From Mycobacterium vicinigordonae (GTDB lineage Bacteria; Actinomycetota; Actinomycetes; Mycobacteriales; Mycobacteriaceae), in the NCBI RefSeq assembly GCF_013466425.1, contig NZ_CP059165.1, forward strand, positions 558,001 to 622,000: a stretch of DNA of 64,000 bases, given 5' to 3'. The notes beneath the pieces are model-generated. The model searched no databases, was not told the origin of the DNA, and saw only the letters and a program-made list of their open reading frames with translations. Shown piece by piece: positions 1 to 39,613 of this stretch. The position numbers and the translations under genes are program-made. Position 1 is the stretch's first letter; each line of letters starts with the position of its first letter.

Positions 1-56
1 ACTGAAACCGCACGATCGTCGTGTGCCACTGGTGCCTCCATCCGCCGTCAGCATAG

Positions 57-87
57 CGGCGGCACTGAAAGGCGCCTTTCGCCGCCG
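57..87. promoter_or_regulatory. Nested inverted repeat upstream of the CoA ligase (operator or terminator)
   Basis: Bases 67-80 (GAAAGGCGCCTTTC) form a perfect 14-base palindrome. It is flanked by outer arms CGGCGGC (57-63) and GCCGCCG (81-87), so 57-87 can fold into a long hairpin with a 3-nt bulge. A TAATAT hexamer, a plausible -10 box, starts at 91. The palindrome would therefore lie near the -35 region of a promoter for the ligase at 167, a typical operator position. There is no T-run, but it could also be the terminator of a gene left of the window. The role is inferred from position only. Confidence 0.45.
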
Positions 88-166
88 AGCTAATATCCCG
101 AAAAATTGACGATCATAAGAGAACAGACATATACTTTCGGCAACATCTGGCCGCGAAAGGTCGACT

Positions 167-1792
167 ATGTTCATGTCATCCACGGCGCACGTCGATACGT
201 TCTGTCGCGACCGCCTACCGCCGATGGACCAGTGGCCGGCGTTCGAGTTCACGTTGCCGGCACTGCGCTATCCAGAACGGCTAAACTGCGCAGTTGCCTT
301 GCTCGACGAAGTGGTCGAAACCCTGGGCGGTGCGCGGCCATGCGTAATCACCGCGGACGAAACCTGGTCCTACGCAGAAGTTTTACGGCGTGCCAACCAA
401 ATCGCGCAGGTACTCTGCGAAGACCTGGGGTTGGTTCCGGGTCAGCGAGTGATGCTGCGAGGGCCCAACAATCCGTGGCTAGTGGCTTGTTGGTTCGCGG
501 TCCTGAAAGCCGGTGCGGTGGTCGTCACGACAACACCGCTGCTGCGCAGCGGTGAACTACGTCAACTGATCGACGTCACCGCGCCCACGATCGCGATATC
601 CGACCACCGCTATAGCCGGGAAATGGTGGCCGCATTGGACGGCACGGGATCGGTTGTGGCTGTCCAGTATGGTAGCCGACTTGCCGACGACCTGATCATG
701 TTGGCGGCTAGGAAATCTGGCGCATTTGCCAACGTCGATACGGCTGCCGACGACGTCGCGTTGCTGGCGCCCACATCCGGTACCACCGGCGCAGCCAAAG
801 CCACCATGCAGTTTCACCGTGACGTGCTCGCCGTTGCGGACACCTTTGGTGCCGGCGTGGTAGGCGCAACCCCCGAAGACGTCTTCACCGGAACTCCGTC
901 GCTTGCCTTCACTTACGGGCTGGGGGCGTTGCTGGTCATCCCGCTGCGAATTGGAGCAGCTACCGTACTGCTGGAGAAACCGACGACTGATGCCATCGTC
1001 TGCGCAGTAGCCAAACTCGGAGCGACGATCCTATTCACAGCGCCCACTGCGTACCGAACACTGATTCGAGAAGGCAAGGCGTCGGCCCTAGCTGGTGTGC
1101 GGCGCTGTATGTCAGCGGGCGAGCATCTACCGGAATGGGTGTGGCACAAGTTTTTCGAGCAATCCGGTCTCCCGATCTTCGATGGACTCGGTTCGACCGA
1201 GATGATGCACGTATTCATCTCGGCGACTCCGGGCAGCGTCAAGCCGGGTTCGACCGGTCGGGTGGTGCCTGGCTATCGCGCCGAGATCGTCGACAGCCAG
1301 GGGTGTCCGGTGGGCAACGGGATCCCCGGCCGTCTTGCCGTGATCGGGCCAACGGGATGTCGGTACCTTGCGGACGCGCGACAGCGTGACTACGTGCAGC
1401 ACGGCTGGAATATCACCGGCGACATTTACCTTCGTGACCAAGACGGCTACTTCTGGTATCAGGGTCGCAGCGACGACATGATCGTGTCGTCCGGCTACAA
1501 CATCTCCGGTGTCGAAATTGAACAGGCGATGGAGAGCCATCCCGACGTAGTCGAGTGCGCGGTTACCGGAAAACCGGACCGCGATCGGGGAATGGTGGTT
1601 CACGCCACAGTGGTGTTGCAGGCTGGAATCGACGGAGACGCTGACACGGTGCAGCGGTTACAGTCTCACGTCAAGCAACTGCTAGCGCCCTACAAATATC
1701 CCCGCAGCGTCGAGTTCACCGATTCGCTGCCCCGAACCGCGACGGGCAAGGTCAAACGATCGCAGTTACGCGGGAAGGACGAGGCCGGTTGA
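167..1792 (+). CDS. 2-aminobenzoate (anthranilate)-CoA ligase-like AMP-forming ligase
   Basis: A 541-residue ANL-superfamily ligase, predicted to turn an aromatic acid, ATP and CoA into the aryl-CoA thioester in the cytoplasm. Visible motifs are the ATP loop TSGTTGAAKA (about residues 203-212), the hinge-region block GRSDDMIVSSGYNISG (about 435-455) and the C-terminal TATGK lysine motif. The N-terminus (AHVDTF..DRLPP..QWP, YPERLNCA) resembles, from memory, 2-aminobenzoate-CoA ligases more than fatty acyl ligases. GAAAGG lies about 6 nt before ATG 167; ATG 173 is an alternative start. It is followed after 81 bp by the monooxygenase/OYE gene, the usual partner of this ligase in the aryl-CoA epoxidation/reduction route. 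Anthranilate and salicylate cannot be told apart by eye. Confidence 0.85.
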   Translation: MFMSSTAHVDTFCRDRLPPMDQWPAFEFTLPALRYPERLNCAVALLDEVVETLGGARPCVITADETWSYAEVLRRANQIAQVLCEDLGLVPGQRVMLRGPNNPWLVACWFAVLKAGAVVVTTTPLLRSGELRQLIDVTAPTIAISDHRYSREMVAALDGTGSVVAVQYGSRLADDLIMLAARKSGAFANVDTAADDVALLAPTSGTTGAAKATMQFHRDVLAVADTFGAGVVGATPEDVFTGTPSLAFTYGLGALLVIPLRIGAATVLLEKPTTDAIVCAVAKLGATILFTAPTAYRTLIREGKASALAGVRRCMSAGEHLPEWVWHKFFEQSGLPIFDGLGSTEMMHVFISATPGSVKPGSTGRVVPGYRAEIVDSQGCPVGNGIPGRLAVIGPTGCRYLADARQRDYVQHGWNITGDIYLRDQDGYFWYQGRSDDMIVSSGYNISGVEIEQAMESHPDVVECAVTGKPDRDRGMVVHATVVLQAGIDGDADTVQRLQSHVKQLLAPYKYPRSVEFTDSLPRTATGKVKRSQLRGKDEAG

Positions 1793-1873
1793 TGAGTTAT
1801 CCCGATTGATGCGATCGGCGTCAAACCTCGTCTACTGCAACGGATAATGCTCGACTTCAACGGAGATGAAACT

Positions 1874-4267
1874 GTGCAAATCGCGATAATCGGCGGGGGA
1901 CCCGGTGGCCTGTACTTTGCCGCCTTGGTCAAACAACTGAATCCGCATCACCAGGTGACGGTCTGGGAGCGCAACGCTGCCGACGACACTTTCGGCTTCG
2001 GAGTAGTGTTCAGCGATGAGACGCTCGACGGTATCGCACTGGCCGACACCGCGGTTTATCGGCAGATGGAGCGTGAATTCGCCCGATGGGAAGACATCGA
2101 TATTCATCTACGGGGTACCGCCCACACCTCCGGTGGTCACGGATTCGCGGCCATGAGCCGCAAGCGACTGTTGTGCATCTTGCAGGCGCGCTGCCATGAA
2201 CTTGGCGTGCAGGTGCACTTCAACCGGGAGGCTCCGCCTGTCGAAGAACTCATGGCCACAGCCGATTTGGTGGTCGCAGCCGATGGTGTCAATTCCGCGA
2301 CACGGAACCGCTATTCCGACGAGTTCGGGACGACGCTGGAAAACGGCAAGAACAAGTACATCTGGCTGGGTACCGACAGGGTGTTCGAGGCCTTCACCTT
2401 CGTCATTCGTGAAGAATCCTGCGGGGTAATGCAGGTGCACGCCTATCCCTATGGGCCGGACGGGAGCACCGTCATCGTCGAGATGCGTGACGAAGTCTGG
2501 CGCCGTGGCGGATTCGACCAGTCGCCCGATCACCCACTCGCGCCAGGCGAGAGCGACGAACGTTCGATTTCGATGCTCGGCGGTGTGCTCGGGGACGTCA
2601 TCGGAGATCACCGCGTACTACTCAACAACTCCCGCTGGTCTAACTTCACGACCGTGCGCAATCGCGTTTGGCGGCACGGCAATCTCGTACTGCTGGGCGA
2701 CGCCGCCCACACCGCCCACTTCTCCATCGGGTCGGGTACGAAACTGGCCATGGAAGATGCGTTGACGCTGGCCGCCTGCCTGCACGAACATCCGGAGCTC
2801 GAAGACGTCCTGCAATCCTATGAGTCGGAGCGCAGGCCAGTCGTCGAATCCACCCAACGCGCGGCTCAAGCCAGCCTGGAGTGGTTCGAAAACATTGCGC
2901 AGTACGTTCACCAGGATCCGCGTCAGTTTGCTTTCAATATCCTGACACGGAGTCGTCGCATCACCCACGAGAACCTGCGAACAAGAGACCCTCGATTCAC
3001 CGAACACACGGAGGTCTGGTACGCCGAAGAACAAGTGCGCCAGCACCATCACGACGAGCCGGCATTCGTCAGCCCGCCGATGTTCCAGCCGTACAGTGTG
3101 CGCGGACTGAGGTTGAAAAATCGGGTGCTGGTCTCCTCAATGGATATGTATTGTTCGGCTAACGGTGTTCCGGGTGACTTTCACCTCGTCCATCTGGGCA
3201 GCAAGGCGCTCGGAGGAGCGGCGCTGGTAATGACCGAGATGGTGTGCGTGTCTCCGATCGGGCGGATCACACCGGGATGCGCCGGTCTCTATACAGCAGA
3301 GCAGGAGAGGTCGTGGCGGCGAATCGTCGACTTCGTTCATGCGCAGAGTGACGCGAAAATCGGTGTGCAACTAGGTCATTCCGGCCGTAAGGGATCCACA
3401 AGAGTGATGTGGGAGGGTATCGATGAGCCCCTGTCGGCAGGAAACTGGCGGATCATCGCACCCTCGCCGTTGAAGTACGGACCCGACAACCAAACGCCTC
3501 GGGAAGTTACCCGCGCCGATCTCGACCAAATTGCAGAACAATTCGTAGATGCTGCCGCTGCGGCCGCTCGCGCGGGCTTCGATCTACTGGAATTGCATTG
3601 TGCCCACGGCTATCTGCTTTCGTCATTCCTTTCCCCGCTCTCGAACATTCGCACTGACGAGTACGGTGGATGCTTGGACAACCGACTACGCTTCCCGCTG
3701 CGCGTTTTCGACGCTGTCCGCGATGTCTGGCCATCGGAACGCCCCATGTCGGTGCGGATTTCAGCGACCGATTGGGCACCCGGAGGAATCGGGATAGACG
3801 ACGCCGTAGAGGTGGCACGTGCTTTTGCCGAACATGGCGCGGACATTATCAACGTCTCGACTGGCCAAGTGGTTAAGGACGAAGCACCTGCATACGGGCG
3901 GAGCTACCAGACACCTTTTGCCGACCGCATCCGGAACGAAGTAGGTTCCGCGTACCGGACCGGTGTTGTCGCGGTGGGAGCGATTTCGTCATACGACGAC
4001 GCCAACTCGGTGCTGCTCGCCGGGCGCGCCGACTTGGTGGCCATTGGGCGCACCCATCTCTACGACCCGCACTGGACCCTGCATGCGGCGGCCGACCAGG
4101 ACTACAGCGGGCCGGGCAGCGACTGGATCGAGCAGTTCAAAGCCGGCAGCCGCAAGCCGCCGACCGGCAACACCGAGAAGCCGCGTCCGCGCCTGGAACT
4201 CATGCGTAACAACATCGCGTCGCCGCCGCCCCGGCGGTGGACGCCGGCAACGATGAGTAGCTCGTGA
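1874..4267 (+). CDS. Bifunctional aryl-CoA monooxygenase / old-yellow-enzyme reductase (2-aminobenzoyl-CoA monooxygenase/reductase or salicylyl-CoA 5-hydroxylase type)
   Basis: A fusion of an N-terminal FAD monooxygenase (residues 1 to about 390: dinucleotide motif GGGPGG near the start, LLGDAAHTAHFSIGSG for the second FAD contact) and a C-terminal old-yellow-enzyme flavin reductase (from about 403: FQPYSVRGLRLKNR, QLGHSGRKG, HCAHGYLLSSFLSPLSN). Known enzymes with this arrangement hydroxylate and reduce 2-aminobenzoyl-CoA, or 5-hydroxylate salicylyl-CoA; length (797 residues) fits. I chose GTG 1874 because GGAGA sits 7 nt upstream and the protein then begins directly with the Rossmann strand MQIAIIGGGPGG, as in the family; the longer ATG 1847 start adds nine residues with no support. 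It is probably co-transcribed with the ligase 81 bp upstream. Confidence 0.88.
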   Translation: MQIAIIGGGPGGLYFAALVKQLNPHHQVTVWERNAADDTFGFGVVFSDETLDGIALADTAVYRQMEREFARWEDIDIHLRGTAHTSGGHGFAAMSRKRLLCILQARCHELGVQVHFNREAPPVEELMATADLVVAADGVNSATRNRYSDEFGTTLENGKNKYIWLGTDRVFEAFTFVIREESCGVMQVHAYPYGPDGSTVIVEMRDEVWRRGGFDQSPDHPLAPGESDERSISMLGGVLGDVIGDHRVLLNNSRWSNFTTVRNRVWRHGNLVLLGDAAHTAHFSIGSGTKLAMEDALTLAACLHEHPELEDVLQSYESERRPVVESTQRAAQASLEWFENIAQYVHQDPRQFAFNILTRSRRITHENLRTRDPRFTEHTEVWYAEEQVRQHHHDEPAFVSPPMFQPYSVRGLRLKNRVLVSSMDMYCSANGVPGDFHLVHLGSKALGGAALVMTEMVCVSPIGRITPGCAGLYTAEQERSWRRIVDFVHAQSDAKIGVQLGHSGRKGSTRVMWEGIDEPLSAGNWRIIAPSPLKYGPDNQTPREVTRADLDQIAEQFVDAAAAAARAGFDLLELHCAHGYLLSSFLSPLSNIRTDEYGGCLDNRLRFPLRVFDAVRDVWPSERPMSVRISATDWAPGGIGIDDAVEVARAFAEHGADIINVSTGQVVKDEAPAYGRSYQTPFADRIRNEVGSAYRTGVVAVGAISSYDDANSVLLAGRADLVAIGRTHLYDPHWTLHAAADQDYSGPGSDWIEQFKAGSRKPPTGNTEKPRPRLELMRNNIASPPPRRWTPATMSSS

Positions 4268-4424
4268 AGCCGCGGCGGCGGCGGGGGCTTGCTCCGCTGA
4301 ACGCGACCATTATCGCAAGGCGCTCGCGCTGCTTCCCCTCGCAGGTACACTGCACGGGATGCGACCTTGACGGCGCTACTAGCCGCAGGTCGCCGCAGTA
4401 GAGCCGGGCTGAGGGTGCGACAAC

Positions 4425-6725
4425 GTGAGACGGTGCGAAGGCAATCTGCCCGCTGAGGTCACCGACTTTATTGGTCGGCGTCGTGAACTAGCGAGTTTGC
4501 GCGCGCAGCTTGCCAATTCGCGCCTAATGACGTTGACGGGCGCTGGTGGGGTCGGAAAGACGCGGATGGCCCTTGAAGTCGCCCGCGATGTGCAGCGCGC
4601 ATTCCACGACGGCACGTGGTTCGTCGAATTGGCGGCTTTGCAGGATGCTGCATTGGTGGCTGACGCGGTGGCCGACGCATTGGGGGTGATCAAGCACACC
4701 ACGCGGTCGCCGCTGCTGCAGCTACAACGTCACCTGGAGAACAAACATCTTCTGGTCATCCTGGATAACTGCGAGCATCTCAGTGACTCGTGCGCGCAAT
4801 TAGTCAGTGCGCTGCTGCGCACGTCACCGAACTTGCACATCCTGGTCACCAGTCGTCATTCGCTTGGTGTGTTCGGGGAACAGATCTTCACGGTGCCGCC
4901 CATGTCGACACCCAGTTCGGCCACCGATCTCGACGCGTCGTCGTTAGATCGTTTCGATTCGGTGGCGCTGCTGTGTGCCCGCGCCTCCGATTGCGGGTCG
5001 GGGTTCGTGGTCACCGACGAGAACAGCAGGTTGGTGGCTCGGCTGTGTGAACGTCTCGACGGCATACCGTTGGCTATCGAACTCGCGGCCGCGCGGCTGC
5101 GAACGCTCACTGTTGCCGATGTCCTGGAGCGACTGGACCGTCGGTTTCAGTTGCTTACCGCCGGCGACAGCTCGGCTCTACCGCGACATCAGACACTGCA
5201 GGCGCTGATCGACTGGAGTCATGCGCTGTGCTCAACGAGCGAGCAACGGTTATGGGCGCAATTGTCGGTGTTCGCCGGCAGCTTCGACCTGGCTGCCGTA
5301 GAAACAGTATGCGACGGACCGGATTTCGCCGCCGACGAACTTGTCGACCTTGTTGATGCGCTGGTCCGTAAGTCGATTCTGATCGCGGAGCCCGGTAGGG
5401 ATCGTAAACGATATCGGCTATTGGAAACCGTTCGCGAACATGGCGCGGCGCGGCTTGCGACAGCCGACCGCGATCGCCTCGAGGAGGCACACCGCGAATA
5501 CTTTTGCGCGGTTGCGCAGCGCAGCCTCGCCGAATGGTGCGGACCCGAACAAGCGGACTGGCTGGTCCGGCTTCGGGAAGACTTCGCCAACCTACGTAGC
5601 GCGCTTGACAGCTATTTGGAATCGGGATTCGTCAACGAGGCATGTGCGTTGGCCTCAGCGCTGCAATGGTATTGGATTGCCGGGGGCAACATCGGTGAAG
5701 GTCGCCGTTGGCTCGGTGAGGCACTGCGGATCGCCGACGCCAGACCCGCGAGCCTTGCACAGGGCCGCGCCATGTGGGTCGACGCGTACCTGGCGCTGCT
5801 ACGAGGGGAGCTGGCAGACGCCCAAAGCCGACTCGATCAAGTCGAACATCTTGATCGGGGCTTTCAGATGCCGGCCGGCGCAGTGGCGCAACTGCGTGGC
5901 ATGGCTGCCCTGTTCCACGGCGATCTGGTACGCGCGCGTGGACACTACGAAAACGCGCTGGCCGATTATGAAGAACGCGACGATGGTGTGGCCGCACTGT
6001 ACATGTTGTTTCAACTGGCCGTGGTCTACGTGTTCGCCGGGAACCACGACAAAGCCGCTGCGCTCTGCGAACTTTCAATTCGGCTGAGCGGGCGGTACGG
6101 CGACCGATGGGGCGCGTCGTACACGCTGTGGGCACTGGCGTTGAACAAGTGGACCGTTGGCGACTACCGCGGTGCGGAACAACTGGCCCGGGAAAGCCTC
6201 AAGGTGAAACAAGAGTACGGGGATCACCTTGGCGTCGCGCATATGGTCGAGATGCTTTCGTGGATCGCGGTGTCCGACCGACGTTTCGAGGACGGCGCGC
6301 GTCTGCAGGGTGAGGCCAATGCGGTGTGGGACAGCCTGGGAACGTCGATGGGCAGGTTTGGCAGGCACTTGGCCGAATGCCATCTGAGTACCGAGGCAAG
6401 CCTTCGCCAGGCGCTTGGCGTGCGAGTGGCGGATTCCCTGATCGGGGCCGGGAACCAGATCCCCGGCGGTGCCCTCGCCCTGGGTACCGACAGGCCACCC
6501 GACGCTGCCGAGCCAGCAGTCCCCGCGCGGCTGACCCCGCGGGAAATCGAGGTCGCCACCCTCGTGGCGCGTGGCATGACCAACCGCGAAATCGGCGTTC
6601 AACTGGTGTTGTCCAGCCGCACCATCGATAGTCATGTACAGCACATCCTGACCAAACTCGGATTCAACGGACGCAGCCAGATTGCGGGCTGGGTTGTCGG
6701 CCAACAAAAGCTCGATGCAGTGTGA
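4425..6725 (+). CDS. LuxR-family regulator with N-terminal AAA/NB-ARC-like ATPase
   Basis: A 766-residue regulator. A P-loop GAGGVGKT is at residues 39-46, a Walker-B-like strand LLVILDNCEHL at about 116-126, a long helical TPR-like middle follows, and a LuxR helix-turn-helix begins LTPREIEVATLVARGMTNREIG at residue 703. It resembles the ATPase-LuxR portion of mycobacterial Rv0890c/Rv1358-type proteins but has no adenylate-cyclase domain. Such proteins usually sense an effector through the ATPase/TPR part. The GTG start has GAGGG about 9 nt upstream; an in-frame ATG further up is blocked by a stop. Its position, 157 bp after the aryl-CoA gene and convergent with the lipase, makes it a candidate regulator of the catabolic genes; that link is inference. 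Confidence 0.85.
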   Translation: MRRCEGNLPAEVTDFIGRRRELASLRAQLANSRLMTLTGAGGVGKTRMALEVARDVQRAFHDGTWFVELAALQDAALVADAVADALGVIKHTTRSPLLQLQRHLENKHLLVILDNCEHLSDSCAQLVSALLRTSPNLHILVTSRHSLGVFGEQIFTVPPMSTPSSATDLDASSLDRFDSVALLCARASDCGSGFVVTDENSRLVARLCERLDGIPLAIELAAARLRTLTVADVLERLDRRFQLLTAGDSSALPRHQTLQALIDWSHALCSTSEQRLWAQLSVFAGSFDLAAVETVCDGPDFAADELVDLVDALVRKSILIAEPGRDRKRYRLLETVREHGAARLATADRDRLEEAHREYFCAVAQRSLAEWCGPEQADWLVRLREDFANLRSALDSYLESGFVNEACALASALQWYWIAGGNIGEGRRWLGEALRIADARPASLAQGRAMWVDAYLALLRGELADAQSRLDQVEHLDRGFQMPAGAVAQLRGMAALFHGDLVRARGHYENALADYEERDDGVAALYMLFQLAVVYVFAGNHDKAAALCELSIRLSGRYGDRWGASYTLWALALNKWTVGDYRGAEQLARESLKVKQEYGDHLGVAHMVEMLSWIAVSDRRFEDGARLQGEANAVWDSLGTSMGRFGRHLAECHLSTEASLRQALGVRVADSLIGAGNQIPGGALALGTDRPPDAAEPAVPARLTPREIEVATLVARGMTNREIGVQLVLSSRTIDSHVQHILTKLGFNGRSQIAGWVVGQQKLDAV

Positions 6726-6746
6726 CCACAGTCGCCGGGGCTGCCT

Positions 6747-8075
6747 TCACTGGCCCTCGATCGCCGAGCAGTTCGGCGTGGTCGGGACCCGGTTGAACCG
6801 GTCGGCAATCCACTGCATGGACCTCTCGCCGTCGACAAAGTAGGTCAGCAGGTGATTGGTGTCCGTCTTGTTGAGGAATGGCGGCTGCTCGTTCGTCCAG
6901 AACTCCACGTCGGCGCCTTTGGCACACCAGTCGAGGCCGAGCTGCTTGGCCCCAGCCCACGGAACGAACGGGTCGTAGCGGTTGGAGTCGATGAACACCG
7001 GCGCGGTTGGCTTCAGGGTTCCCAGGCGCTGGGCGGCGAGGATTTCCTTGAGCGGCGAGGACCCCATCAGCTCGCCGAGGTCGGTGTTGAAATACGGTGC
7101 GATATGGCGAAATCCGAAGCTGGCAATTGTTTCGACCAGACACATCACCTGAGTGCGCTGGACGAGTTCGACACCACGTTCGGTCAGGGTGCCCATGAGC
7201 GGACCGGCTACCTCGGGATACGCCGCGGCGACGCCGTTAAGTAGATAACCCAAGGAACCCACCAGCATGCTGCCGTCGGCGAAGGGCATGATCTGGGACA
7301 AATCAGCAGGGGGTGCACCGGCCCAGGCGCCCACCACGTCGAGGTCCGGGGCATACGAGGGGGCCAGCTCGGCGGCCGAGGCAGACGCTTCGCCTCCTTG
7401 CGAATAGCCCCAAAATGCCACCGGCCCTTGGTGGTTAAGGGAAGTACCCGGAAGTCGCATAGCTGCCCGCGCCGCATCGATGAGGACGTGGCCCTGGGAA
7501 ACCCGGTTCATGAAAGGTTGTATCTTGCCTGGGACTCCAAGCCCCTCATAGTCGGTCACCACAATCGCAAATCCGCGTGCGACCATCGTCGCGATGAAGG
7601 TCTCTTCAAAGTTGAACATCAGATCGAAACCTGAATTGCCTACCGAAGCGTGTATCCCCTGATTGAACAATCGGGATGGGGCACATTGCTCCCCGAGGCC
7701 GTACGGCAACGTCCCGAACGCGATGAGGGGACGCGGTCCGTTGCCGGGCCACGGGTTTTCCGGCTCGAGGTACGTGCCGGTGACGGCCACCGGATTCCCG
7801 CGAGTATCGGTGCTGCGGTACATGAGACGTGTCCCGGCCGCCATGAGCGCACCTAGCTGCCCAGATGGCTCCAGTACCAATCTGCTAGGCTCACTTCGGA
7901 TTACATCACCGGGTACACCCGCGGGGAGGGGGTCGGGTGGCGTGTAGAACTCCTGGTACTGGGACTCATCGGCATGTGCGGTCGGCGTCGCGTCGACGCC
8001 GCAGAACCCACTGAAAGCGACAACCGCCAAAGACACGAATGTCATTGACCACCGCCGGATTGGACGGGGCGTCAT
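6747..8075 (-). CDS. Secreted lipase of the LIP (fungal-type secretory lipase) family
   Basis: A 442-residue alpha/beta hydrolase with a Sec signal peptide (basic start, hydrophobic core about residues 12-26, then a PTAHADE cleavage region), so probably exported. The nucleophile elbow is GYSQGG (Ser225); the likely acid and base are Asp368 (in DSNRYDPFVPW) and His408 (in DTNHLL). This matches the LIP family (Pfam PF03583), which mycobacteria carry in several copies. It lies 168 bp downstream of the Rieske oxygenase on the same strand and ends 21 bp from the LuxR regulator (convergent). A link to the aromatic pathway is unclear: it could hydrolyse an esterified substrate outside the cell or be unrelated. 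Confidence 0.87.
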   Translation of the reverse strand: MTPRPIRRWSMTFVSLAVVAFSGFCGVDATPTAHADESQYQEFYTPPDPLPAGVPGDVIRSEPSRLVLEPSGQLGALMAAGTRLMYRSTDTRGNPVAVTGTYLEPENPWPGNGPRPLIAFGTLPYGLGEQCAPSRLFNQGIHASVGNSGFDLMFNFEETFIATMVARGFAIVVTDYEGLGVPGKIQPFMNRVSQGHVLIDAARAAMRLPGTSLNHQGPVAFWGYSQGGEASASAAELAPSYAPDLDVVGAWAGAPPADLSQIMPFADGSMLVGSLGYLLNGVAAAYPEVAGPLMGTLTERGVELVQRTQVMCLVETIASFGFRHIAPYFNTDLGELMGSSPLKEILAAQRLGTLKPTAPVFIDSNRYDPFVPWAGAKQLGLDWCAKGADVEFWTNEQPPFLNKTDTNHLLTYFVDGERSMQWIADRFNRVPTTPNCSAIEGQ

Positions 8076-8243
8076 GGTTATATCCTCTCGGTGTCGAAAT
8101 CAGTCCAAGCCACTTGGCGCCCGGCCTGTGCGGCGATGGGGGTCCAGTCGCGTCTCACCCACCCGCGAAAGTTGTTGAAAAAGAATATTGATTACTGCGT
8201 GAACACAGCAGGGTGATGCTGGCCAGGCGGCAATGTGCCGTTG

Positions 8244-9401
8244 CTAGGGCGCCGCGATACCGCTGGCGTGGTTTGAGGCCAGTTGGCGCCACTTGGTTAT
8301 GCACATGTCCGGCGGGAATAGATGTTCGTTTGCCCAGCCGTCGTGGTCGCGGTAGAACTCTTCTTGCGCTTCGCGTGCCCAGACGTCATCGTCGTTGAAA
8401 CCGTGTAATGCCAAATCGCGCCACTTGGACTCGAATTCGCTTTTGTAGGAGGCAATGTCGTCTGCTGAACGTACTCTGCGCTGTAGCACCTGGAAGTATT
8501 CGTGACTGGTGGCCGTGATGGGAACGTAGAACTCGTATTGGATCAATGAGGGGTCAGGGAATGGATCCACCTTCAGCACCCCCGGCAGCCAGACACTGAC
8601 CTGAGCGGCCACCAGCTTCTCGTCACCGGTTAGTTCGCAGCGCAGCACGGGCTCGCCGCCTAGCCGTGCCTCGAAAACCGGCTGGTAGTTCTGCGCCAGG
8701 TTGTCGACGACACCTTTAGGCCAACCCTCGGAATGCACGCTCATGGCGCCCCGGTCGGCCGGCACGAATCCGAATGGCAGCGCGAGGTTGTTCTGTTGAA
8801 CCAGTGGGGAATTACGGTGCATGAAGATGTGCGTAGTGTCGAAGCCGTTCTCCACACCGAGCCGCCAGTTGGAGGCCACAGTGCGGCGAATCCCGAGGCA
8901 ATGAGTGTCGGAATCCAAGAATCCAGGTGGCACATCGTGGCTGAGGTCGTGGGGTTCAGCGTCGCCGACGAACACGAACACCAGTCCCTGGCGTTCGGTC
9001 ACGGGATACACAGGCACCGAGACCTGACCGATTATCGGCGAGTTAGGCGAAGTCAACACATCGCAGAGTTCTCCATCTTCCAGGCGATAAGTCCAGCCGT
9101 GGTACCAACACGAAACCGTGCCCTTGGCAAAACACAGCGGTTGTGCAGAGAACTTGACCCCACGGTGTGCGCACCGATCGGCGATCGCTCTGACCTGCCC
9201 GTCGCTGCGCGTCAACAGGATTCGTCGACCCAACAGTGTCACCGTCGCGAAGTCGTCCTCTGCCACCTCGTGGCTGAACAGGACCGGGTGCCAGTGGTTG
9301 CTGAATCCATATTCGGCTTGCAGGTAGCGCGGCCACTTCGAAGCCCCAACCGAACCTCCAGCGCCCGTAGCCGCATCAACGCGTTCATCAGCCGAAGTCA
9401 C
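8244..9401 (-). CDS. Rieske non-haem iron oxygenase, carbazole 1,9a-dioxygenase (CarAa)-like
   Basis: Terminal oxygenase component of a ring-hydroxylating dioxygenase. The Rieske [2Fe-2S] ligands are visible as CAHRG and CWYHGW, the mononuclear-iron ligands as NGFDTTHIFMH (Asp, His, His), with the third carboxylate in GFNDDDVWAREA. From memory, these and SVWLPGVLKVDPFP, NHWHPVLFS and the C-terminal KWRQLASNHASGI follow CarAa of carbazole degraders closely along the whole length. No ferredoxin or reductase gene is in the window. Start: AAGGAG directly abuts ATG 9410, too close to serve it, but lies 9 nt from GTG 9401, which I chose. An ORF start at 9521 is unsupported. The gene follows IclR and the Lrp-like gene on the same strand. 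Substrate not proven. Confidence 0.85.
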   Translation of the reverse strand: MTSADERVDAATGAGGSVGASKWPRYLQAEYGFSNHWHPVLFSHEVAEDDFATVTLLGRRILLTRSDGQVRAIADRCAHRGVKFSAQPLCFAKGTVSCWYHGWTYRLEDGELCDVLTSPNSPIIGQVSVPVYPVTERQGLVFVFVGDAEPHDLSHDVPPGFLDSDTHCLGIRRTVASNWRLGVENGFDTTHIFMHRNSPLVQQNNLALPFGFVPADRGAMSVHSEGWPKGVVDNLAQNYQPVFEARLGGEPVLRCELTGDEKLVAAQVSVWLPGVLKVDPFPDPSLIQYEFYVPITATSHEYFQVLQRRVRSADDIASYKSEFESKWRDLALHGFNDDDVWAREAQEEFYRDHDGWANEHLFPPDMCITKWRQLASNHASGIAAP

Positions 9402-9590
9402 TACACTCATCTCCTTGCGCTCGGCGCTAACTCGTGGCCAGGTCACTATCCCCACCCGCGCCGGCAGCCGCATCCGCTGAAATACTGAATTCCCTACCGA
9501 AGCGGCATTGCGTATGGGCAACGGTATGACTTCAACACCGCCGCCAGTCGACGAACGAGATACGTGGCGGATGACGGATGCGGAAGTGCT

Positions 9591-9869
9591 TCAGTCCGCG
9601 CCGATGGAGAACATTGCTTCGAGATCCATCCGCGAGTACGCGCGAAAGGCGATGTGAGTCCGAGTATCGAGCACATGCGGGAGCTTCGAGATCTCGCTTG
9701 TCACCAGCTCCGCGACGCGGTCGAACTCAGCGACCCGAAGGACGGCGATGACGTCGAATTCGCCGGTAACCGAGTACACCTCGCTGATGCCGCCGATATC
9801 GGTCAGCGCCTCGGCCAACTCGGCGACTCCTTGTTTGGCAGCGACGATCATTACGAATGCGGTGATCAT
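9591..9869 (-). CDS. Stand-alone Lrp/AsnC ligand-binding (RAM) domain protein
   Basis: A 92-residue protein (MITAFVMIVAAKQGVAEL ..) matching only the effector-binding alpha/beta domain of Lrp/AsnC regulators, with no DNA-binding domain. Typical features are the GVAELAEALTDIGGISEVYSV core and GEFDVIAVLRV strand. Such mini-proteins bind amino acids or related small molecules and may modulate partner regulators or enzymes. AGGAAGG lies about 5 nt before ATG 9869; the longer upstream frame has non-protein-like composition and is rejected. It starts 16 bp after the IclR gene and precedes the Rieske gene on the same strand, so it is probably one transcript with both. An anthranilate-like ligand is a guess. 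Confidence 0.8.
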   Translation of the reverse strand: MITAFVMIVAAKQGVAELAEALTDIGGISEVYSVTGEFDVIAVLRVAEFDRVAELVTSEISKLPHVLDTRTHIAFRAYSRMDLEAMFSIGAD

Positions 9870-9885
9870 GCCGAACCTTCCTAGC

Positions 9886-10746
9886 TCACTCGTATCGCGG
9901 TTGCGGTTTCGGTTTGCGGTGGGACGGATTTGCTGGGATGCTATCTGACGGATCGGGCCGCCAGCACCGAATGCCGTCTCCGGCCGGCCGCAGAGTGCGG
10001 CCGATGGCGTGCGCCGTGCTGTACACCGCCGAAGCGACCTGGCGCACATTCATCTTCCCCGACCATCCCGCCGCCGAAATCGCCGCCACCGGATTGTCCC
10101 GGGTGTCGCGGATAACTGTTGCGACGCAGACGATCCCGGGGCCAGACTCTTCATGGTCCACCGCTATACCTGTCGTCGCTACGCGGGCGAGCTGCCGCCT
10201 CAGCAATCCGGGCTGCCGGATCGTACGTGGCCCCAGGCTGGGTAGACCTGTGGCGACGAGTTCGTCGACTACTCGCGCTGGCGAGGCAGCCAACAGCGCC
10301 TTACCGACACCGGTTGCGTGCGCTGGCAACCGTCCACCTACCCGCGACGGCAACTGAGGGCCACCCAATCTCGGCAGTATCTCGAGATAGAGCACATCCG
10401 CCCCGTCGAGCACAGCCAGATGAATTGTCTGCTGCGTGGTTGCGTAGAGATCAGTGAGCAGCGGCATCGCAGCATCGAGCGGGAACCTCGGCTGCCAAGC
10501 GCGGGAACCCCACTGGAAGACCTGTAGCCCCAGGGTGACTCCCCCGGCGTGCCGGTCGAGCAATCCCGCGGGGATCATATCCCTGACCAGGCGCCCCACC
10601 GTAGAGGGCGGTAAGCCAGTGTACCGCGCGAGTTCGCGTATCCCACAAGGCGTTTCGAAGTGGTACAACGCAGCGATGATCTGTGTCATCCGGTGGATCA
10701 CCGAGGTGGCCGGTTGGGTTTTGGTGTGCCACTCTGCGGGACGCAT
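9886..10746 (-). CDS. IclR-family transcriptional regulator
   Basis: A winged-helix N-terminal domain (IIAALYHFETPCGIRELARYTGLPPSTVGRLV) is followed by the IclR effector-binding domain (HLAVLDGADVLYLEIL, PAHATGVGKALLA, GIAVDHEESGPGIVCVA). IclR proteins commonly control aromatic catabolic operons through a small ligand. It is divergent from the hydratase-dehydrogenase-aldolase operon, with about 100 bp between starts, and upstream of the Lrp-like and Rieske genes, so it can plausibly govern both directions. I chose ATG 10746 (286 residues); a TTG at 10803 would add 19 residues. The C-terminus is a proline- and basic-rich tail (about 30 residues) beyond the usual family end. Confidence 0.87.
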   Translation of the reverse strand: MRPAEWHTKTQPATSVIHRMTQIIAALYHFETPCGIRELARYTGLPPSTVGRLVRDMIPAGLLDRHAGGVTLGLQVFQWGSRAWQPRFPLDAAMPLLTDLYATTQQTIHLAVLDGADVLYLEILPRLGGPQLPSRVGGRLPAHATGVGKALLAASPARVVDELVATGLPSLGPRTIRQPGLLRRQLARVATTGIAVDHEESGPGIVCVATVIRDTRDNPVAAISAAGWSGKMNVRQVASAVYSTAHAIGRTLRPAGDGIRCWRPDPSDSIPANPSHRKPKPQPRYE

Positions 10747-10757
10747 TGCTTCAGTAT

Positions 10758-10772
10758 CCGCGGTCGCCGCGG
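10758..10772. promoter_or_regulatory. Candidate IclR operator in the divergent intergenic region
   Basis: CCGCGG (10758-10763) and CCGCGG (10767-10772) form an inverted repeat with a 3-nt centre, just upstream of the chosen iclR-type start and within the divergent region facing the hydratase gene. If the longer TTG start of the regulator is real, the repeat would be coding. It is GC-rich, so chance occurrence is possible. Confidence 0.25.
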
Positions 10773-10847
10773 CACGGTTACCTTTATGGGCCACTTTTTT
10801 CAATTTCCCACCCGCACAGCAGCACCCGTAGAAGCCTCGAGGTGCAT

Positions 10848-11690
10848 GTGAGCGGGAGCGTGGAATACGGTGCCGATACCAGCACGCGGGGGAATCTCCG
10901 GGACCCTGCCGTACGGGCCGCCGCCGACCGGTTATGGTGTGCCTCTCATACGCGTCGGCCCACCGCCCCGATACGGACCGTCATCGGTGCCCACTCCATC
11001 GACGCTGCATACGCGGTTCAGCAGGAACTCGTTGCACGCCGAGTCGCCGCCGGCGGGGTCGTCGTTGGGCGCAAGATCGGCCTCACATCGCCAGCAGTGC
11101 AGCAGCAGCTCGGTGTCGACCAACCCGACTTCGGGGTGCTGCTTGCGGATATGGATATCTCGGCATCGGGTGTGGTGCCTGCCGACCTGTTACTGCAGCC
11201 CAGAGCGGAGGCCGAAATTGCCTTCGCGCTGAAGAACGACCTCACTGACCCGGATGATCCGAAACGTATCCGCGCTGCGATTGACTATGCCGTCGGCGCA
11301 GTGGAGATTGTTGACAGCCGGATCTCCGACTGGGATCTGAGCATCGCCGACACCATCGCGGACAATGCGTCGAGTGGACTGTTCGTCCTGGGTGAGCGGC
11401 GACTGCCTATCGCGGAGCTCGATACCCGGGGAGTCGTAATGCGGATGTACGCCAACGACAGGTTGGCTTCCCAGGGAGTCGGCACTGCATGTCTGGGCGA
11501 CCCCCTTGCTGCGTTGGCCTGGCTGGCGAGCACCGCCGCCGCCTTCGGCGATCCGCTGCGGGCCGGCCAGCTGGTGCTGTCCGGGGCATTGGGGCCCATG
11601 GTCCTCACACCTGCGGGCACCCATATCCGGGCTGAAATCGGCGCATTGGGAACGGTTTCCGTCCTCTTCTCACCCGGAGGCCAGCGATGA
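10848..11690 (+). CDS. mhpD: 2-hydroxypenta-2,4-dienoate (2-keto-4-pentenoate) hydratase
   Basis: Adds water to 2-hydroxypenta-2,4-dienoate to give 4-hydroxy-2-oxovalerate, the first step after meta-cleavage and hydrolysis of an aromatic ring. Family blocks [24 protein letters not shown] and [12 protein letters not shown] are clear. The upstream part of the open frame (from 10683) overlaps the IclR gene antisense and is not protein-like; I chose GTG 10848, preceded by GAGGTG, giving 280 residues (the family is about 260-270). It overlaps the next gene by 4 bp (ATGA), so translation is coupled. Mycobacteria also carry hsaE for cholesterol catabolism; this is a separate paralogue in a different context. 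Confidence 0.88.
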
Positions 11691-12646
11691 AGAGAACGAA
11701 AGTCGCGGTGCTCGGTTCAGGCAATATCGGCACCGACCTGATGATAAAGATCCTCTGTTCCGCAGAGCTCCTCGAGGTGGCCGCAATGGTGGGGATCGAC
11801 ACCGCATCTGACGGTCTCGCCCGGGCCGCTCGGTCCGGAATACCTATCACTCACCGTGGCGTCGAAGGACTTATCGCCATGCCTGGATTCGCCGACATCG
11901 ATATTGTTTGTGACGCCACATCCGCCGCCGCCCACCGCGCCAATGCCGCCGCCCTGGCGCCTTACGGGAAAACACTGATCGACCTGACACCGGCGGCGAT
12001 TGGTCCTTTCGTAGTGCCGTCGGTGAACCTGCACGCACATCTGGAGGCCGGGGCGACCAATCTGAATATGGTCACCTGCGGGGGACAGGCCACCATTCCG
12101 ATAGTTGCGGCGGTGGCGGACGTGACAACCGTGCACTATGCCGAGATCGTGGCCTGCATTGCAGCCAAATCGGCAGGTCCCGGGACTCGCGCCAATATCG
12201 ATGAGTTTACCGAAACTACCTCGCGCGCAATCGAAACCGTCGGCTGCGCAAGACGCGGAAAGGCCATCATCATCCTGAATCCCGCAGAGCCTCCTCTGAT
12301 GATGCGCGACACCGTCCTCTGCCTGATCGGTGCGGCGGACCACGACGCGGTCACGGCGTCGATCGAGGCCATGATCGCCAGGGTCGCTGCCTACGTGCCC
12401 GGCTACCGCCTCAAACAGCCTGTGCAGTTCACCCCGCTGGGCCAGGACTACCCCGTCGACACCCTGGTGTCGTGCGACACCGCGTTAGTACGTACCAAGG
12501 TGTCGGTATTCATCGAGGTAGAAGGCGCTGCGCAGTACCTGCCCGCCTATGCCGGCAACCTCGACATCATGACCTCGGCAGCCTTACAGGTCGCCGAATC
12601 AGTTGCCCGGCGTCGTCATCGTTCGGCACTGTCAGCGGATGCCTGA
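11687..12646 (+). CDS. mhpF: Acetaldehyde dehydrogenase (acylating)
   Basis: A 319-residue NAD-dependent enzyme that converts acetaldehyde, channelled from the aldolase, to acetyl-CoA. The N-terminal Rossmann motif is GSGNIGTDL, and the catalytic cysteine lies in [12 protein letters not shown]. Family blocks [17 protein letters not shown] and [16 protein letters not shown] are present. GGAGG lies about 6 nt before ATG 11687. Four-base overlap with the hydratase upstream and TGATG overlap with the aldolase downstream show a tightly coupled operon; aldolase and dehydrogenase of this type form a channelling complex. It is paralogous to HsaG. Confidence 0.93.
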
Positions 12647-13767
12647 TGGAAAACAAGCTCTACATCCAAGACGTGACTCTGCGCGACGGCATGCACGCCA
12701 TCCGGCATCGCATCGGTCGGCGTGACGTCGCCCGCATCGCGGGCGCGCTCGACTCAGCGGGCGTCGATGCCATCGAGGTCGCGCACGGCGACGGCTTGGC
12801 CGGCGGTTCCCTGACCTACGGTCCCGGCAGCCACACAGACTGGCAATGGATAGAGGCGGCCGTCGACGCGGTCGATGGCGCGGTGATTACTACGCTGCTG
12901 CTGCCCGGCATCGGCACCATATCCGAACTCAAGCGTGCGCACGCGCTGGGTGTTGCTTCGATCCGGATCGCTACGCATTGCACCGAGGCCGACATATCCG
13001 CTCAGCACATAGCCACCGCCCGCGAGCTCGGAATGGATGTGGCCGGCTTCCTGATGATGAGTCACATGGCCGAACCAGCCCGGTTGGCCACTCAGGCCAA
13101 AATGATGGAATCCTATGGTGCTCACTGCGTTTACGTCACTGATTCCGGAGGAAGGCTCACTATGGATGGTGTTCGAGACCGGATACGGGCCTTCCGCGAC
13201 GTACTTGATCTGAACACCGAGGTCGGCATACATGCCCACCAGAACTTGAGCTTGGCCGTGGCCAATAGCGTTGTTGCGGTCGAAGAGGGTGTCGCACGCG
13301 TCGATGCCTCCCTGGCTGGCCAGGGGGCGGGCGCCGGAAATACTTCCATTGAAGCGTTTGTCGCCGTTGCCGACTTGCTGGGCTGGCGGCACGGTTGCGA
13401 CTTGTTCGCACTTCAGGATGCGGCCGAAGGCCTGGTCCGGCCGTTGCGAGATCGGCCGGTGCAGGTCGATCGTGAGACGCTCACGCTCGGTTACGCGGGC
13501 GTCTACTCATCGTTCCTGCGCCATGCCGAAACTGCCTCGCGCACCTATGGTGTCGACGCCCGCAGTTTGCTGTTGGAGGTGGGTCGCCGCGGCCTGGTGG
13601 GTGGCCAGGAAGACATGATCGTCGACATCGCACTGGATCTGCTGGCCGGTGAGGCGGGGACTTTTGCCCGCAACGCATGGACAGTAGAAGATCAGTTCCA
13701 GATGCGCACCCGCCGTTGGGGTTCCAGGAACAGCGCATCGTCCTCGGACACCTCGAACGCCTCGTAG
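12646..13767 (+). CDS. mhpE: 4-hydroxy-2-oxovalerate aldolase with extended C-terminus
   Basis: A 373-residue HMGL-like TIM-barrel class II aldolase that splits 4-hydroxy-2-oxovalerate into pyruvate and acetaldehyde. The start of the barrel ([10 protein letters not shown]), the metal-site [13 protein letters not shown] and the conserved [13 protein letters not shown] and [11 protein letters not shown] blocks are intact. The ATG overlaps the dehydrogenase stop (TGATG). Known members are about 335-350 residues; here the last 20-25 residues (Arg/Ser-rich, from about QMRTRRWG) are encoded on the opposite strand of the zmp1 3' end, with a 76-bp antisense overlap. This suggests that the native stop was lost when the block became joined to zmp1; activity should not be affected because the core is complete. 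Confidence 0.92.
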
Positions 13768-39553: not shown

Positions 39554-39613
39554 GTTATTGCAGGTCGACCACCCGGGCCCGCTGCTGGACCGGGGCGGTC
39601 GGCCTGCCCGTCT

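What the first reader, a model, noticed from the sequence alone, without database searches (positions are those of the whole stretch)
167..13767. Carbazole/dibenzofuran-like two-branch catabolic island in a Mycobacterium
A CarAa-like angular dioxygenase sits between an aryl-CoA ligase plus monooxygenase/OYE pair and a complete 2-hydroxypentadienoate hydratase-dehydrogenase-aldolase operon. Known chemistry: angular dioxygenation, meta-cleavage and hydrolysis of carbazole yield anthranilate plus 2-hydroxypenta-2,4-dienoate; dibenzofuran yields salicylate plus the same C5 acid. The island encodes enzymes that would process both products, through the aryl-CoA route rather than the usual AntABC/catechol route. 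This combination of an angular oxygenase, hybrid CoA epoxidation and an Mhp-type lower pathway appears unusual and, to my knowledge, undescribed in mycobacteria. The ring-cleavage dioxygenase, HOPDA hydrolase and electron-transfer proteins are missing from the window.
Basis: partly seen in the sequence, partly recalled or inferred. Interest (0 to 1): 0.85.

Follow-up and report, generated by a model that had tools for sequence, protein, structure and literature searches.

The report
Carbazole-degrading gene island in mycobacteria
This mycobacterial chromosome carries a 22.8-kb gene block, absent from the same spot in close relatives, that encodes relatives of the known carbazole-pathway enzymes and is predicted to break carbazole (a nitrogen-containing coal-tar compound) down to anthranilate and then, likely as a coenzyme-A thioester, to ordinary metabolites: a route reported in a few other bacteria but not found for mycobacteria in the papers searched here.

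Summary
The finding is real and reaches beyond the window. CarAa-like oxygenase, CoA ligase, fused monooxygenase/reductase and hydratase-dehydrogenase-aldolase operon are as described. The genes reported missing lie 5-9 kb left of base 1: CarC, CarBa/CarBb, Rieske ferredoxin and reductase, followed in the same tight run by two acyl-CoA dehydrogenases, an enoyl-CoA hydratase, an SDR and RidA. The whole is a 22,790-bp block (C1:548904-571693) between two genes that are direct neighbours in six relatives. Of 396 sampled genomes of the genus, all 5 with a close CarAa also carry the fused anthraniloyl-CoA enzyme, against 2 of the other 391. CarAa keeps the metal ligands and 18 of 20 checked positions of pCAR1 CarAa and is 70% identical to the Nocardioides enzyme (PDB 3GCF). 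Best reading: carbazole to anthranilate plus a C5 acid, anthranilate by the CoA route. The dibenzofuran/salicylate branch is not supported. The combination is already known (Erythrobacter KY5, Thalassococcus S3; a review adds Nocardioides), so this is a mycobacterial variant of a known kind. Particular here: car and CoA genes in one run, a conserved LuxR-type regulator, and an Mce importer in four of five islands, though not this one.

The parts
1..13693 (.). window part of the inserted island; the whole is 22,790 bp, genome C1:548904-571693 (C1 = window coordinate + 558000), and begins 9,097 bases left of the window on locus L009. Island genes left of the window, all + except the last, in C1 coordinates: carC 549149-549985, carBa 549982-550275, carBb 550268-551089, carAc 551136-551477, carAd 551513-552754, acyl-CoA dehydrogenase 552807-553958, enoyl-CoA hydratase 553955-554788, acyl-CoA dehydrogenase 554785-556005, SDR 556002-556772, RidA 556769-557191, PaaX-family regulator 557178-557963 (minus)
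   Evidence: homology to the flanks in seven relatives stops at L009 10870-10903 and resumes at window 13689-13696; GC 0.622 against 0.66 in the 5-kb flanks. Genes: carC alpha/beta hydrolase, HsaD/BphD-like below cut-offs, 47% to pCAR1 CarC; carBa no Pfam hit, 36% over 45 aa to pCAR1 CarBa, same place in 5 of 5 islands; carBb PF02900 4e-29; carAc PF00355 7e-19; carAd PF07992 7e-63; dehydrogenases PF00441, PF02770, PF02771; hydratase NF006107 377 bits, cut-off 330; SDR PF00106; RidA PF01042 3e-17; PaaX PF20803, PF08223, PF07848, TIGR02277 151 bits, below its cut-off of 265
167..1792 (+). predicted anthranilate-CoA ligase
   Evidence: TIGR02262 subfamily, below cut-off (336 of 375); 54% over 539 aa to Rue61a ARUE_113p00220, whose activity was assayed (PMC3534580 passages)
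1847..4267 (+). fused anthraniloyl-CoA monooxygenase/reductase (ACMR)
   Evidence: NF006101 over cut-off; 65% over 799 aa to the Rue61a plasmid protein
4425..6725 (+). LuxR-type regulator with NTPase and TPR domains
   Evidence: PF00196, PF13401, PF13424; a relative lies within 2.7 kb of carAa in all 5 islands
6747..8075 (-). secreted-lipase-like protein; role in the island unclear
   Evidence: PF03583 2e-53; no copy at 45% or more in the stretches fetched from the six other ACMR genomes; a 58% copy lies about 8 kb from the 42% CarAa-like gene of G156
8244..9401 (-). carAa-like terminal oxygenase; opposite strand to the rest of car, unlike in the other four genomes
   Evidence: PF11723 3e-79; 3GCF 639 bits; metal ligands and most checked positions conserved
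9886..10803 (-). IclR-family regulator, predicted for the C5 operon
   Evidence: PF01614 4e-31; divergent from the hydratase here and in G218; no copy at 45% or more seen in the other stretches
10848..11690 (+). 2-hydroxypenta-2,4-dienoate hydratase (carD/mhpD type)
   Evidence: NF008461 270 bits, cut-off 350; 43% to pCAR1 CarD
11687..12646 (+). acylating acetaldehyde dehydrogenase (carF type)
   Evidence: TIGR03215 436 bits, cut-off 282
12646..13767 (+). 4-hydroxy-2-oxovalerate aldolase (carE type); its last residues run across the right junction into the 3' end of the flanking peptidase gene
   Evidence: TIGR03217 535 bits, cut-off 286; C-terminal comparison and junction sequences

Best explanation
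The window's left end holds the right-hand 13.7 kb of a 22.8-kb chromosomal gene block, lacking in close relatives, whose enzymes are predicted to degrade carbazole to anthranilate plus a C5 acid and likely to take anthranilate on as its coenzyme-A thioester. Predicted order of work: CarAa with ferredoxin CarAc and reductase CarAd dioxygenates carbazole at positions 1 and 9a, giving 2'-aminobiphenyl-2,3-diol; CarBaBb opens the hydroxylated ring; CarC hydrolyses the product to anthranilate and 2-hydroxypenta-2,4-dienoate. Hydratase, aldolase and acylating dehydrogenase turn the C5 acid into pyruvate and acetyl-CoA. The ligase makes anthraniloyl-CoA; [quoted passage not shown] RidA likely hydrolyses the enamine and releases ammonium; the enoyl-CoA hydratase, two acyl-CoA dehydrogenases and SDR likely open and shorten the ring by beta-oxidation-like steps. 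A PaaX-family repressor (perhaps sensing anthraniloyl-CoA), a LuxR-type and an IclR-type protein are predicted regulators. Shown: gene content, order, intact frames, conservation, empty site in relatives. Inferred: all substrates, products, inducers and the order of the ring-opening steps.
For: Gene content. CarAa: PF11723 and Rieske domains, 70% identical to the Nocardioides carbazole dioxygenase; Rieske Cys/His, iron ligands H183/H187/D333, F275 and Q282 unchanged from pCAR1 CarAa, I262 to V as in Nocardioides (the iron ligands are named in PMC3423008 passages; the other position numbers are recalled; 262, 275 and 282 vary among the mutant PDB chains aligned). It is the only PF11723 gene in this genome. 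Anthranilate branch: ACMR 65% and ligase 54% identical to the Arthrobacter Rue61a plasmid genes; that ligase was assayed, and that strain grows on anthranilate but not salicylate. Linkage: 5 of 5 genomes with CarAa at 74% or more have ACMR against 2 of the other 391 (Fisher p 2.7e-10, not corrected for kinship); in all five both lie within about 40 kb. carC to ridA is one ten-gene run with gaps of 52 bp or less and six of nine joints overlapping. dN/dS 0.06-0.27 for ten genes in two comparisons. Empty site: six relatives have the flanking genes 11-111 bp apart.
Against: No growth, expression or enzyme data for this strain or any relative here. CarBa rests on position and weak similarity. The ligase, hydratase, hydrolase, reductase and PaaX protein score below the curated cut-offs of their best named models. 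NCBI names the fused protein family after salicylyl-CoA, not anthraniloyl-CoA. In Rue61a itself anthraniloyl-CoA was seen in anthranilate-grown but not in oxoquinaldine-grown cells. The genome holds 13 other ring-hydroxylating oxygenases of PF00848; none passes the anthranilate-dioxygenase model TIGR03228, and the AndAc model was not tried. The window's own place inside the actinobacterial CarAa group has modest support (90/80 to 93/99). Synonymous changes are near saturation, so dN/dS is rough. Three of the five carriers (G076, G164, G364) are close to each other (Mce proteins 88-96% identical), so the independent cases are about three.
Confidence: 0.8

Rival explanations
1. The real substrate is another angularly attacked or 2-aminophenyl compound (a substituted carbazole, a carbazole alkaloid, or another N-heterocycle) that also yields anthranilate; carbazole would be a side substrate.
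For: Nothing in sequence fixes the exact substrate. Other ACMR clusters sit beside quinaldine genes (Rue61a), an alkylquinolone gene (BG43 aqdC1) and tryptophan/kynurenine genes (NJ-530, Sagittula), so this module is joined to several upper pathways.
Against: 18 of 20 checked CarAa positions match pCAR1 CarAa, and CarBaBb, CarC and a C5 pathway are what carbazole needs. An M. novocastrense protein at 60% identity shows that changes at 275 and 282 occur; the window has none.
Confidence: 0.13
2. Dibenzofuran or a dioxin-like ether is attacked, giving salicylate, which the ligase and fused monooxygenase process as salicylyl-CoA to gentisyl-CoA.
For: The fused protein's NCBI family is named salicylyl-CoA 5-hydroxylase/oxidoreductase; a Kordiimonas carbazole dioxygenase also acts on dibenzofuran (PMC10992316 passages).
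Against: No gentisate-type dioxygenase among the 20 island proteins scanned. RidA would have no nitrogen to release. The reductase fusion fits dearomatisation of anthraniloyl-CoA. The closest assayed system grows on anthranilate, not salicylate. The IC177 enzyme prefers carbazole over dibenzofuran (PMC10992316 passages).
Confidence: 0.04
3. Upper (car) and CoA modules are neighbours by chance and serve separate substrates.
For: The CoA module occurs without car in G132 and G277.
Against: They share one gap-poor ten-gene run here, and the same gene order in G218 at 54-76% identity; in three further genomes ACMR lies about 24 kb from carAa. No anthranilate 1,2-dioxygenase reaches the TIGR03228 cut-off in this genome.
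Confidence: 0.03

Closest known systems
car(N) cluster of Nocardioides aromaticivorans IC177 (carRAaCBaBbAcAd with carDFE)
   Same: Class IIB make-up (Rieske ferredoxin, glutathione-reductase-type reductase); order C-Ba-Bb-Ac-Ad; overlapping starts and stops; CarAa 70% identical (layout from PMC10992316 passages)
   Different: carAa is split off, on the other strand, about 13.5 kb from carAd; LuxR- and PaaX-type regulators lie in the island; anthraniloyl-CoA genes follow carAd directly. The IC177 genome itself was not compared
car plus anthraniloyl-CoA genes of Thalassococcus sp. S3 and Erythrobacter sp. KY5
   Same: Carbazole upper pathway with a CoA route for anthranilate in place of anthranilate dioxygenase (part 1 of 2 of each announcement read)
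   Different: Marine alphaproteobacteria, other car types and gene orders; S3 uses another extradiol enzyme; the review says KY5 has no carAc in or near its cluster
pCAR1 of Pseudomonas resinovorans CA10
   Same: CarAa 47%, CarC 47%, CarD 43%, CarF 62%, CarE 66%, CarBb 33%, CarAc 33% identical; C5 lower pathway nearby
   Different: Its reductase gave no match to the window's; a ring-hydroxylating dioxygenase lies near by, which is AntABC by recall and matches the catechol route given for CA10 in the review
Anthraniloyl-CoA genes of Arthrobacter sp. Rue61a plasmid pAL1
   Same: Ligase, fused ACMR, RidA and PaaX neighbours at 54, 65, 52 and 47-49% identity
   Different: Upper pathway is for quinaldine; beside them lie a fumarylacetoacetate-hydrolase-family protein, cupin and thioesterase instead of enoyl-CoA hydratase, SDR and acyl-CoA dehydrogenases
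2-aminobenzoyl-CoA pathway of Azoarcus evansii
   Same: Ligase, then monooxygenase/reductase, then beta-oxidation-type enzymes (PMC4539516 passages)
   Different: No carbazole upper pathway is described there; its sequences were not compared here

Membership tests
Carbazole 1,9a-dioxygenase terminal oxygenase (CarAa) | Rieske domain plus PF11723 catalytic domain | tested here: met
Carbazole 1,9a-dioxygenase terminal oxygenase (CarAa) | Rieske Cys/His set and iron ligands H183, H187, D333 (J3 numbering) | tested here: met
   iron ligands named in PMC3423008 passages; Rieske positions recalled
Carbazole 1,9a-dioxygenase terminal oxygenase (CarAa) | Closer to characterised carbazole enzymes than to other PF11723 oxygenases | tested here: met
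   639 bits to 3GCF against 285 to 2-oxoquinoline 8-monooxygenase 1Z01; in the tree, in an 18-row actinobacterial group with Nocardioides and Janibacter (93/99), apart from the rows at 34-40% identity. 1Z01 is not in the tree; the window's exact place is weakly supported
Carbazole 1,9a-dioxygenase terminal oxygenase (CarAa) | Angular dioxygenation of carbazole | not testable with these tools
   needs enzyme assay
car gene cluster, class IIB (IC177 type) | Rieske-type ferredoxin and glutathione-reductase-type reductase | tested here: met
car gene cluster, class IIB (IC177 type) | CarBa and CarBb ring-cleavage pair and CarC hydrolase | tested here: met
   CarBa weak by sequence, placed by position and conservation in 5 of 5 islands
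car gene cluster, class IIB (IC177 type) | carAa heads the cluster, order Aa-C-Ba-Bb-Ac-Ad | tested here: not met
   carAa lies apart on the opposite strand; the order C-Ba-Bb-Ac-Ad is kept
Anthraniloyl-CoA (2-aminobenzoyl-CoA) pathway | aryl-CoA ligase beside a fused FAD monooxygenase/OYE protein | tested here: met
Anthraniloyl-CoA (2-aminobenzoyl-CoA) pathway | anthranilate as the ligase substrate | not testable with these tools
   inferred from 54% identity to an assayed ligase
Salicylate via gentisyl-CoA | gentisate-type dioxygenase in the cluster | tested here: not met
   none among the 20 island proteins scanned; the rest of the genome was not searched for one
2-hydroxypentadienoate lower pathway (CarDFE/MhpDFE) | hydratase, acylating acetaldehyde dehydrogenase and aldolase together | tested here: met
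   dehydrogenase and aldolase over curated cut-offs, hydratase below

The most novel reading that the evidence does not exclude
Mycobacteria hold a home-grown carbazole mineralisation system in which a dedicated Mce-type envelope importer, otherwise known for lipids and sterols, brings in a polyaromatic N-heterocycle, and in which a RidA protein is the dedicated deaminase that frees ammonium from the dearomatised anthraniloyl-CoA. The importer sits between carAa and the C5 operon in four of five islands and near the CoA genes in the two car-less genomes; this strain's island has lost it or never had it.
Probability: 0.25. Interest if true: 0.65.

Novelty: new variant of a known kind. Interest (0 to 1): 0.47.

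Why it matters
If right, some mycobacteria can use carbazole by a route that avoids catechol, and the island is shared by M. triplex and, in decayed form, M. genavense (both known as opportunists, recalled), which points to a past or present environmental life on aromatic N-heterocycles. It also gives a small conserved gene set (ligase, ACMR, two acyl-CoA dehydrogenases, hydratase, SDR, RidA) with which the poorly resolved steps after anthraniloyl-CoA dearomatisation, above all the loss of nitrogen, can be tested directly. The Mce neighbours raise a testable case of Mce transport for a non-lipid aromatic.

Tried and rejected
Looked for plasmid carriage: the 8 plasmid records with a CarAa match are all under 54% identity and all in Proteobacteria. 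No recombinase is among the 20 island proteins scanned and no word over 8 bp is shared by the roughly 150-bp junction zones compared, so the way of entry is unknown. Looked for an own anthranilate dioxygenase: eight matches to TIGR03228, none over cut-off. Looked for a wider spread in the class: 8 of 394 genomes match, the window genome and 7 at 37-40% identity (query was the Nocardioides protein), so the sample holds no Nocardioides-type car and the statement that Nocardioides has the CoA cluster rests on the review. Considered the Mce block as car-specific: rejected in that simple form, because 39 of 396 genomes pass the same threshold, 35 of them without a close CarAa; only its place beside car or ACMR is special. 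Considered ACMR neighbourhoods as one uniform pathway: rejected, two kinds were seen. That a PaaX protein of Rue61a answers to anthraniloyl-CoA is recalled; the library did not return that paper. No structure prediction was run; homology was strong enough.

Rows dropped before counts: M. genavense CarAa from the tree, because no open frame over 300 residues matched; tblastn rows under 35% (except G156), 34%, 45% and 33% identity. The protein searches listed 120 of 438 and 120 of 7789.


Full report
What is there. The window is C1:558001-622000 of a complete 6.27-Mb single-contig genome. Two corrections: the 'monooxygenase/OYE pair' is one fused protein (806 residues as listed), and several listed ORFs start upstream of the likely gene start.

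The missing genes. They are there (locus L009): an HsaD/BphD-like hydrolase (CarC), a 97-residue CarBa-like protein, a LigB-type CarBb, a Rieske ferredoxin (CarAc) and a glutathione-reductase-type reductase (CarAd), then acyl-CoA dehydrogenase, enoyl-CoA hydratase, second acyl-CoA dehydrogenase, SDR, RidA, and a PaaX-type regulator divergent from the ligase. From carC to ridA ten genes follow each other with gaps of 52 bp or less, six of the nine joints overlapping by a few bases (coordinates, starts chosen by me). So upper-pathway and anthranilate-CoA genes plausibly form one transcript; that is inferred, not measured.

An inserted block. In six of the 40 relatives searched (G001, G006, G007, G010, G017, G023) the molybdopterin oxidoreductase and M13 peptidase genes that flank the island lie 11-111 bp apart; in G015 they are 2.4 kb apart; in the others one gene was not found, or the two lie on other contigs or far apart. 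In this genome 22.8 kb lies between them. DNA alignment to those seven puts the ends at L009 10870-10903 and window 13689-13696; with G006 the block is 22,790 bp, GC 0.622 against 0.66 on either side. No recombinase was among the proteins scanned and no repeat longer than 8 bp is shared by the junction zones. The aldolase frame has lost its usual end and runs about 75 bases across the right junction. Loss of the block in all those relatives is the less simple alternative and was not tested.

The oxygenase. Best solved relative is 3GCF, carbazole 1,9a-dioxygenase oxygenase, 639 bits, against 285 for 2-oxoquinoline 8-monooxygenase. Named proteins nearest in the large protein search (438 hits, 120 listed): Mycobacterium sp. 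663a-19 80%, M. holsaticum 79%, BiH015 76-78%, Pseudonocardia 73%, Nocardioides aromaticivorans 70%, Janibacter OC11 65%. The tree of 30 rows places it in an actinobacterial group with Nocardioides and Janibacter (93/99), away from pCAR1 and from the rows at 34-40% identity; support for its exact place is modest and no starred set of half the rows or fewer holds it. Of 20 positions looked at, the window differs from pCAR1 CarAa at 202 (L to F) and 262 (I to V; the Nocardioides enzyme has V as well).

The anthranilate branch. The fused protein passes the NF006101 cut-off and is 65% identical over 799 residues to the Arthrobacter Rue61a plasmid protein; the neighbouring ligase is 54% identical to ARUE_113p00220. 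PMC3534580 (passages) reports anthranilate-CoA ligase activity for that gene, anthraniloyl-CoA in anthranilate-grown cells (though not in oxoquinaldine-grown ones), growth on anthranilate and none on salicylate. PMC4539516 (passages) gives the Azoarcus scheme: ligase, monooxygenase/reductase, then beta-oxidation enzymes. No gentisate-type dioxygenase is among the island proteins.

Conservation. Among 396 genomes of the genus, six match CarAa at E 1e-60 or better: the window genome, G076, G164, G218 and G364 at 74% identity or more, and G156 at 42%. The loci that name M. genavense ATCC 51234, M. triplex DSM 44626 and Mycolicibacterium sp. BiH015 agree in contig lengths and positions with G076, G164 and G218. 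ACMR is in seven genomes: the five plus G132 and G277. Fisher p for 5 of 5 against 2 of 391 is 2.7e-10; kinship is not corrected for, and three carriers are close kin. G218 has the same order from carC through the CoA genes and LuxR to carAa, but with carAa in the common direction, a second carAa beyond carC, and the Mce block before the C5 operon. G364, G164 and G076 have the CoA genes as a separate block, ACMR about 24 kb from carAa, with Mce block and C5 operon between. The reversed carAa is seen only in the window. dN/dS for ten genes against G218 and G364 is 0.06-0.27, rough because synonymous sites are near saturation.

RidA. It is at 7 of 7 mycobacterial ACMR loci and annotated in 6 of the 7 plasmid regions I opened (not in Comamonas within 9 kb), out of 94 plasmid records with an ACMR match. 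The Rue61a paper cites hydrolytic deamination of the ACMR product without naming an enzyme. Hence the proposal that RidA does this step. A search for RidA with 2-aminobenzoyl-CoA or 'anthranilate degradation' listed four papers, none holding both RidA and 2-aminobenzoyl-CoA; that is a small search.

Mce. A block of Mce and MlaE-type genes lies between carAa and the C5 operon in G076, G164, G218 and G364, and is absent from the window's island. The nearest own proteins to one of its Mce subunits are 60-61% identical. The same type of Mce protein passes the threshold in 39 of 396 genomes, so the family is not car-specific; but in G132 and G277, which lack a close CarAa, it is again about 19 kb from ACMR.

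What is known. PMC6256505 (KY5) and PMC6624753 (S3), part 1 of 2 of each read, report carbazole genes with an anthranilate-CoA ligase or an anthraniloyl-CoA cluster. The review PMC10992316 (passages) adds that the aca cluster is in Nocardioides and describes the IC177 car cluster. So the combination is not new. Searches for carbazole with Mycobacterium, Mycolicibacterium or M. triplex terms listed no title or abstract start on a mycobacterial car/aca island; the papers listed were not opened for this, one search listed 20 of 23, and subscription journals are mostly not in that library.

Verdict. A real, intact, conserved carbazole island of known chemistry, absent from its site in close relatives, in a genus where the searched papers do not report it, with its own layout. 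Function is predicted, not shown.

Noticed in passing
L010 10039-19408 (genome C1:528039-537408), left of the window: A second lower-GC block: MiaB-like radical SAM protein, two methyltransferases, P450, SnoaL-like protein, LOG-type 'lysine decarboxylase', NUDIX and isopentenyl transferase, resembling a fas-type cytokinin cluster (resemblance recalled).
   Followed up: partly
L013, L034, L054 (M. genavense ATCC 51234, G076): Island copy looks decayed: two stops inside the carAa match, the LuxR gene in four pieces, ligase, acetaldehyde dehydrogenase and aldolase in two pieces each; draft-sequence error is not excluded.
   Followed up: partly
L052, L073 (G132); L051, L074 (G277): CoA module plus Mce block without car or C5 genes in the 40 kb read; in G132 beside it lie a 3-oxoadipyl-CoA-thiolase-like gene, a PaaF-like hydratase and a 3-hydroxyacyl-CoA dehydrogenase, hinting at the end of the pathway.
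   Followed up: partly
P0025, P0026, P0027 (Mycolicibacterium novocastrense): Three CarAa-like proteins, apparently on one 134,626-base contig, at 59-65% identity; P0025 has W at 275 and A at 282, so perhaps another substrate.
   Followed up: partly
L012 and L014 (BiH015, G218): Two diverged carAa copies, 77 and 76% identical to the window's, on either side of the car-CoA run.
   Followed up: no
L033 (G156): A 40-42% CarAa-like gene with a 58% relative of the window's lipase-like protein about 8 kb away and a 34% CarC-like gene, but no CarB or ACMR match in the 20 kb read.
   Followed up: no
window 39600-52500 and L009 1-3000: Window stretch whose + strand frames are rich in Arg and Cys, and an L009 stretch of about 77% GC, as expected opposite PE_PGRS-type genes (guess).
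   Followed up: no
genome C1:4734780 and C1:4742825: Two ring-hydroxylating oxygenase genes with identical scores 8 kb apart, apparently a recent duplication.
   Followed up: no
plasmid regions L055, L066-L071: ACMR neighbourhoods come in two kinds: FAH-family protein + cupin + thioesterase (4 of 7 opened) or enoyl-CoA hydratase + acyl-CoA dehydrogenase + SDR (3 of 7). In 4 of 7 the neighbours suggest anthranilate from quinaldine, alkylquinolone or tryptophan.
   Followed up: partly
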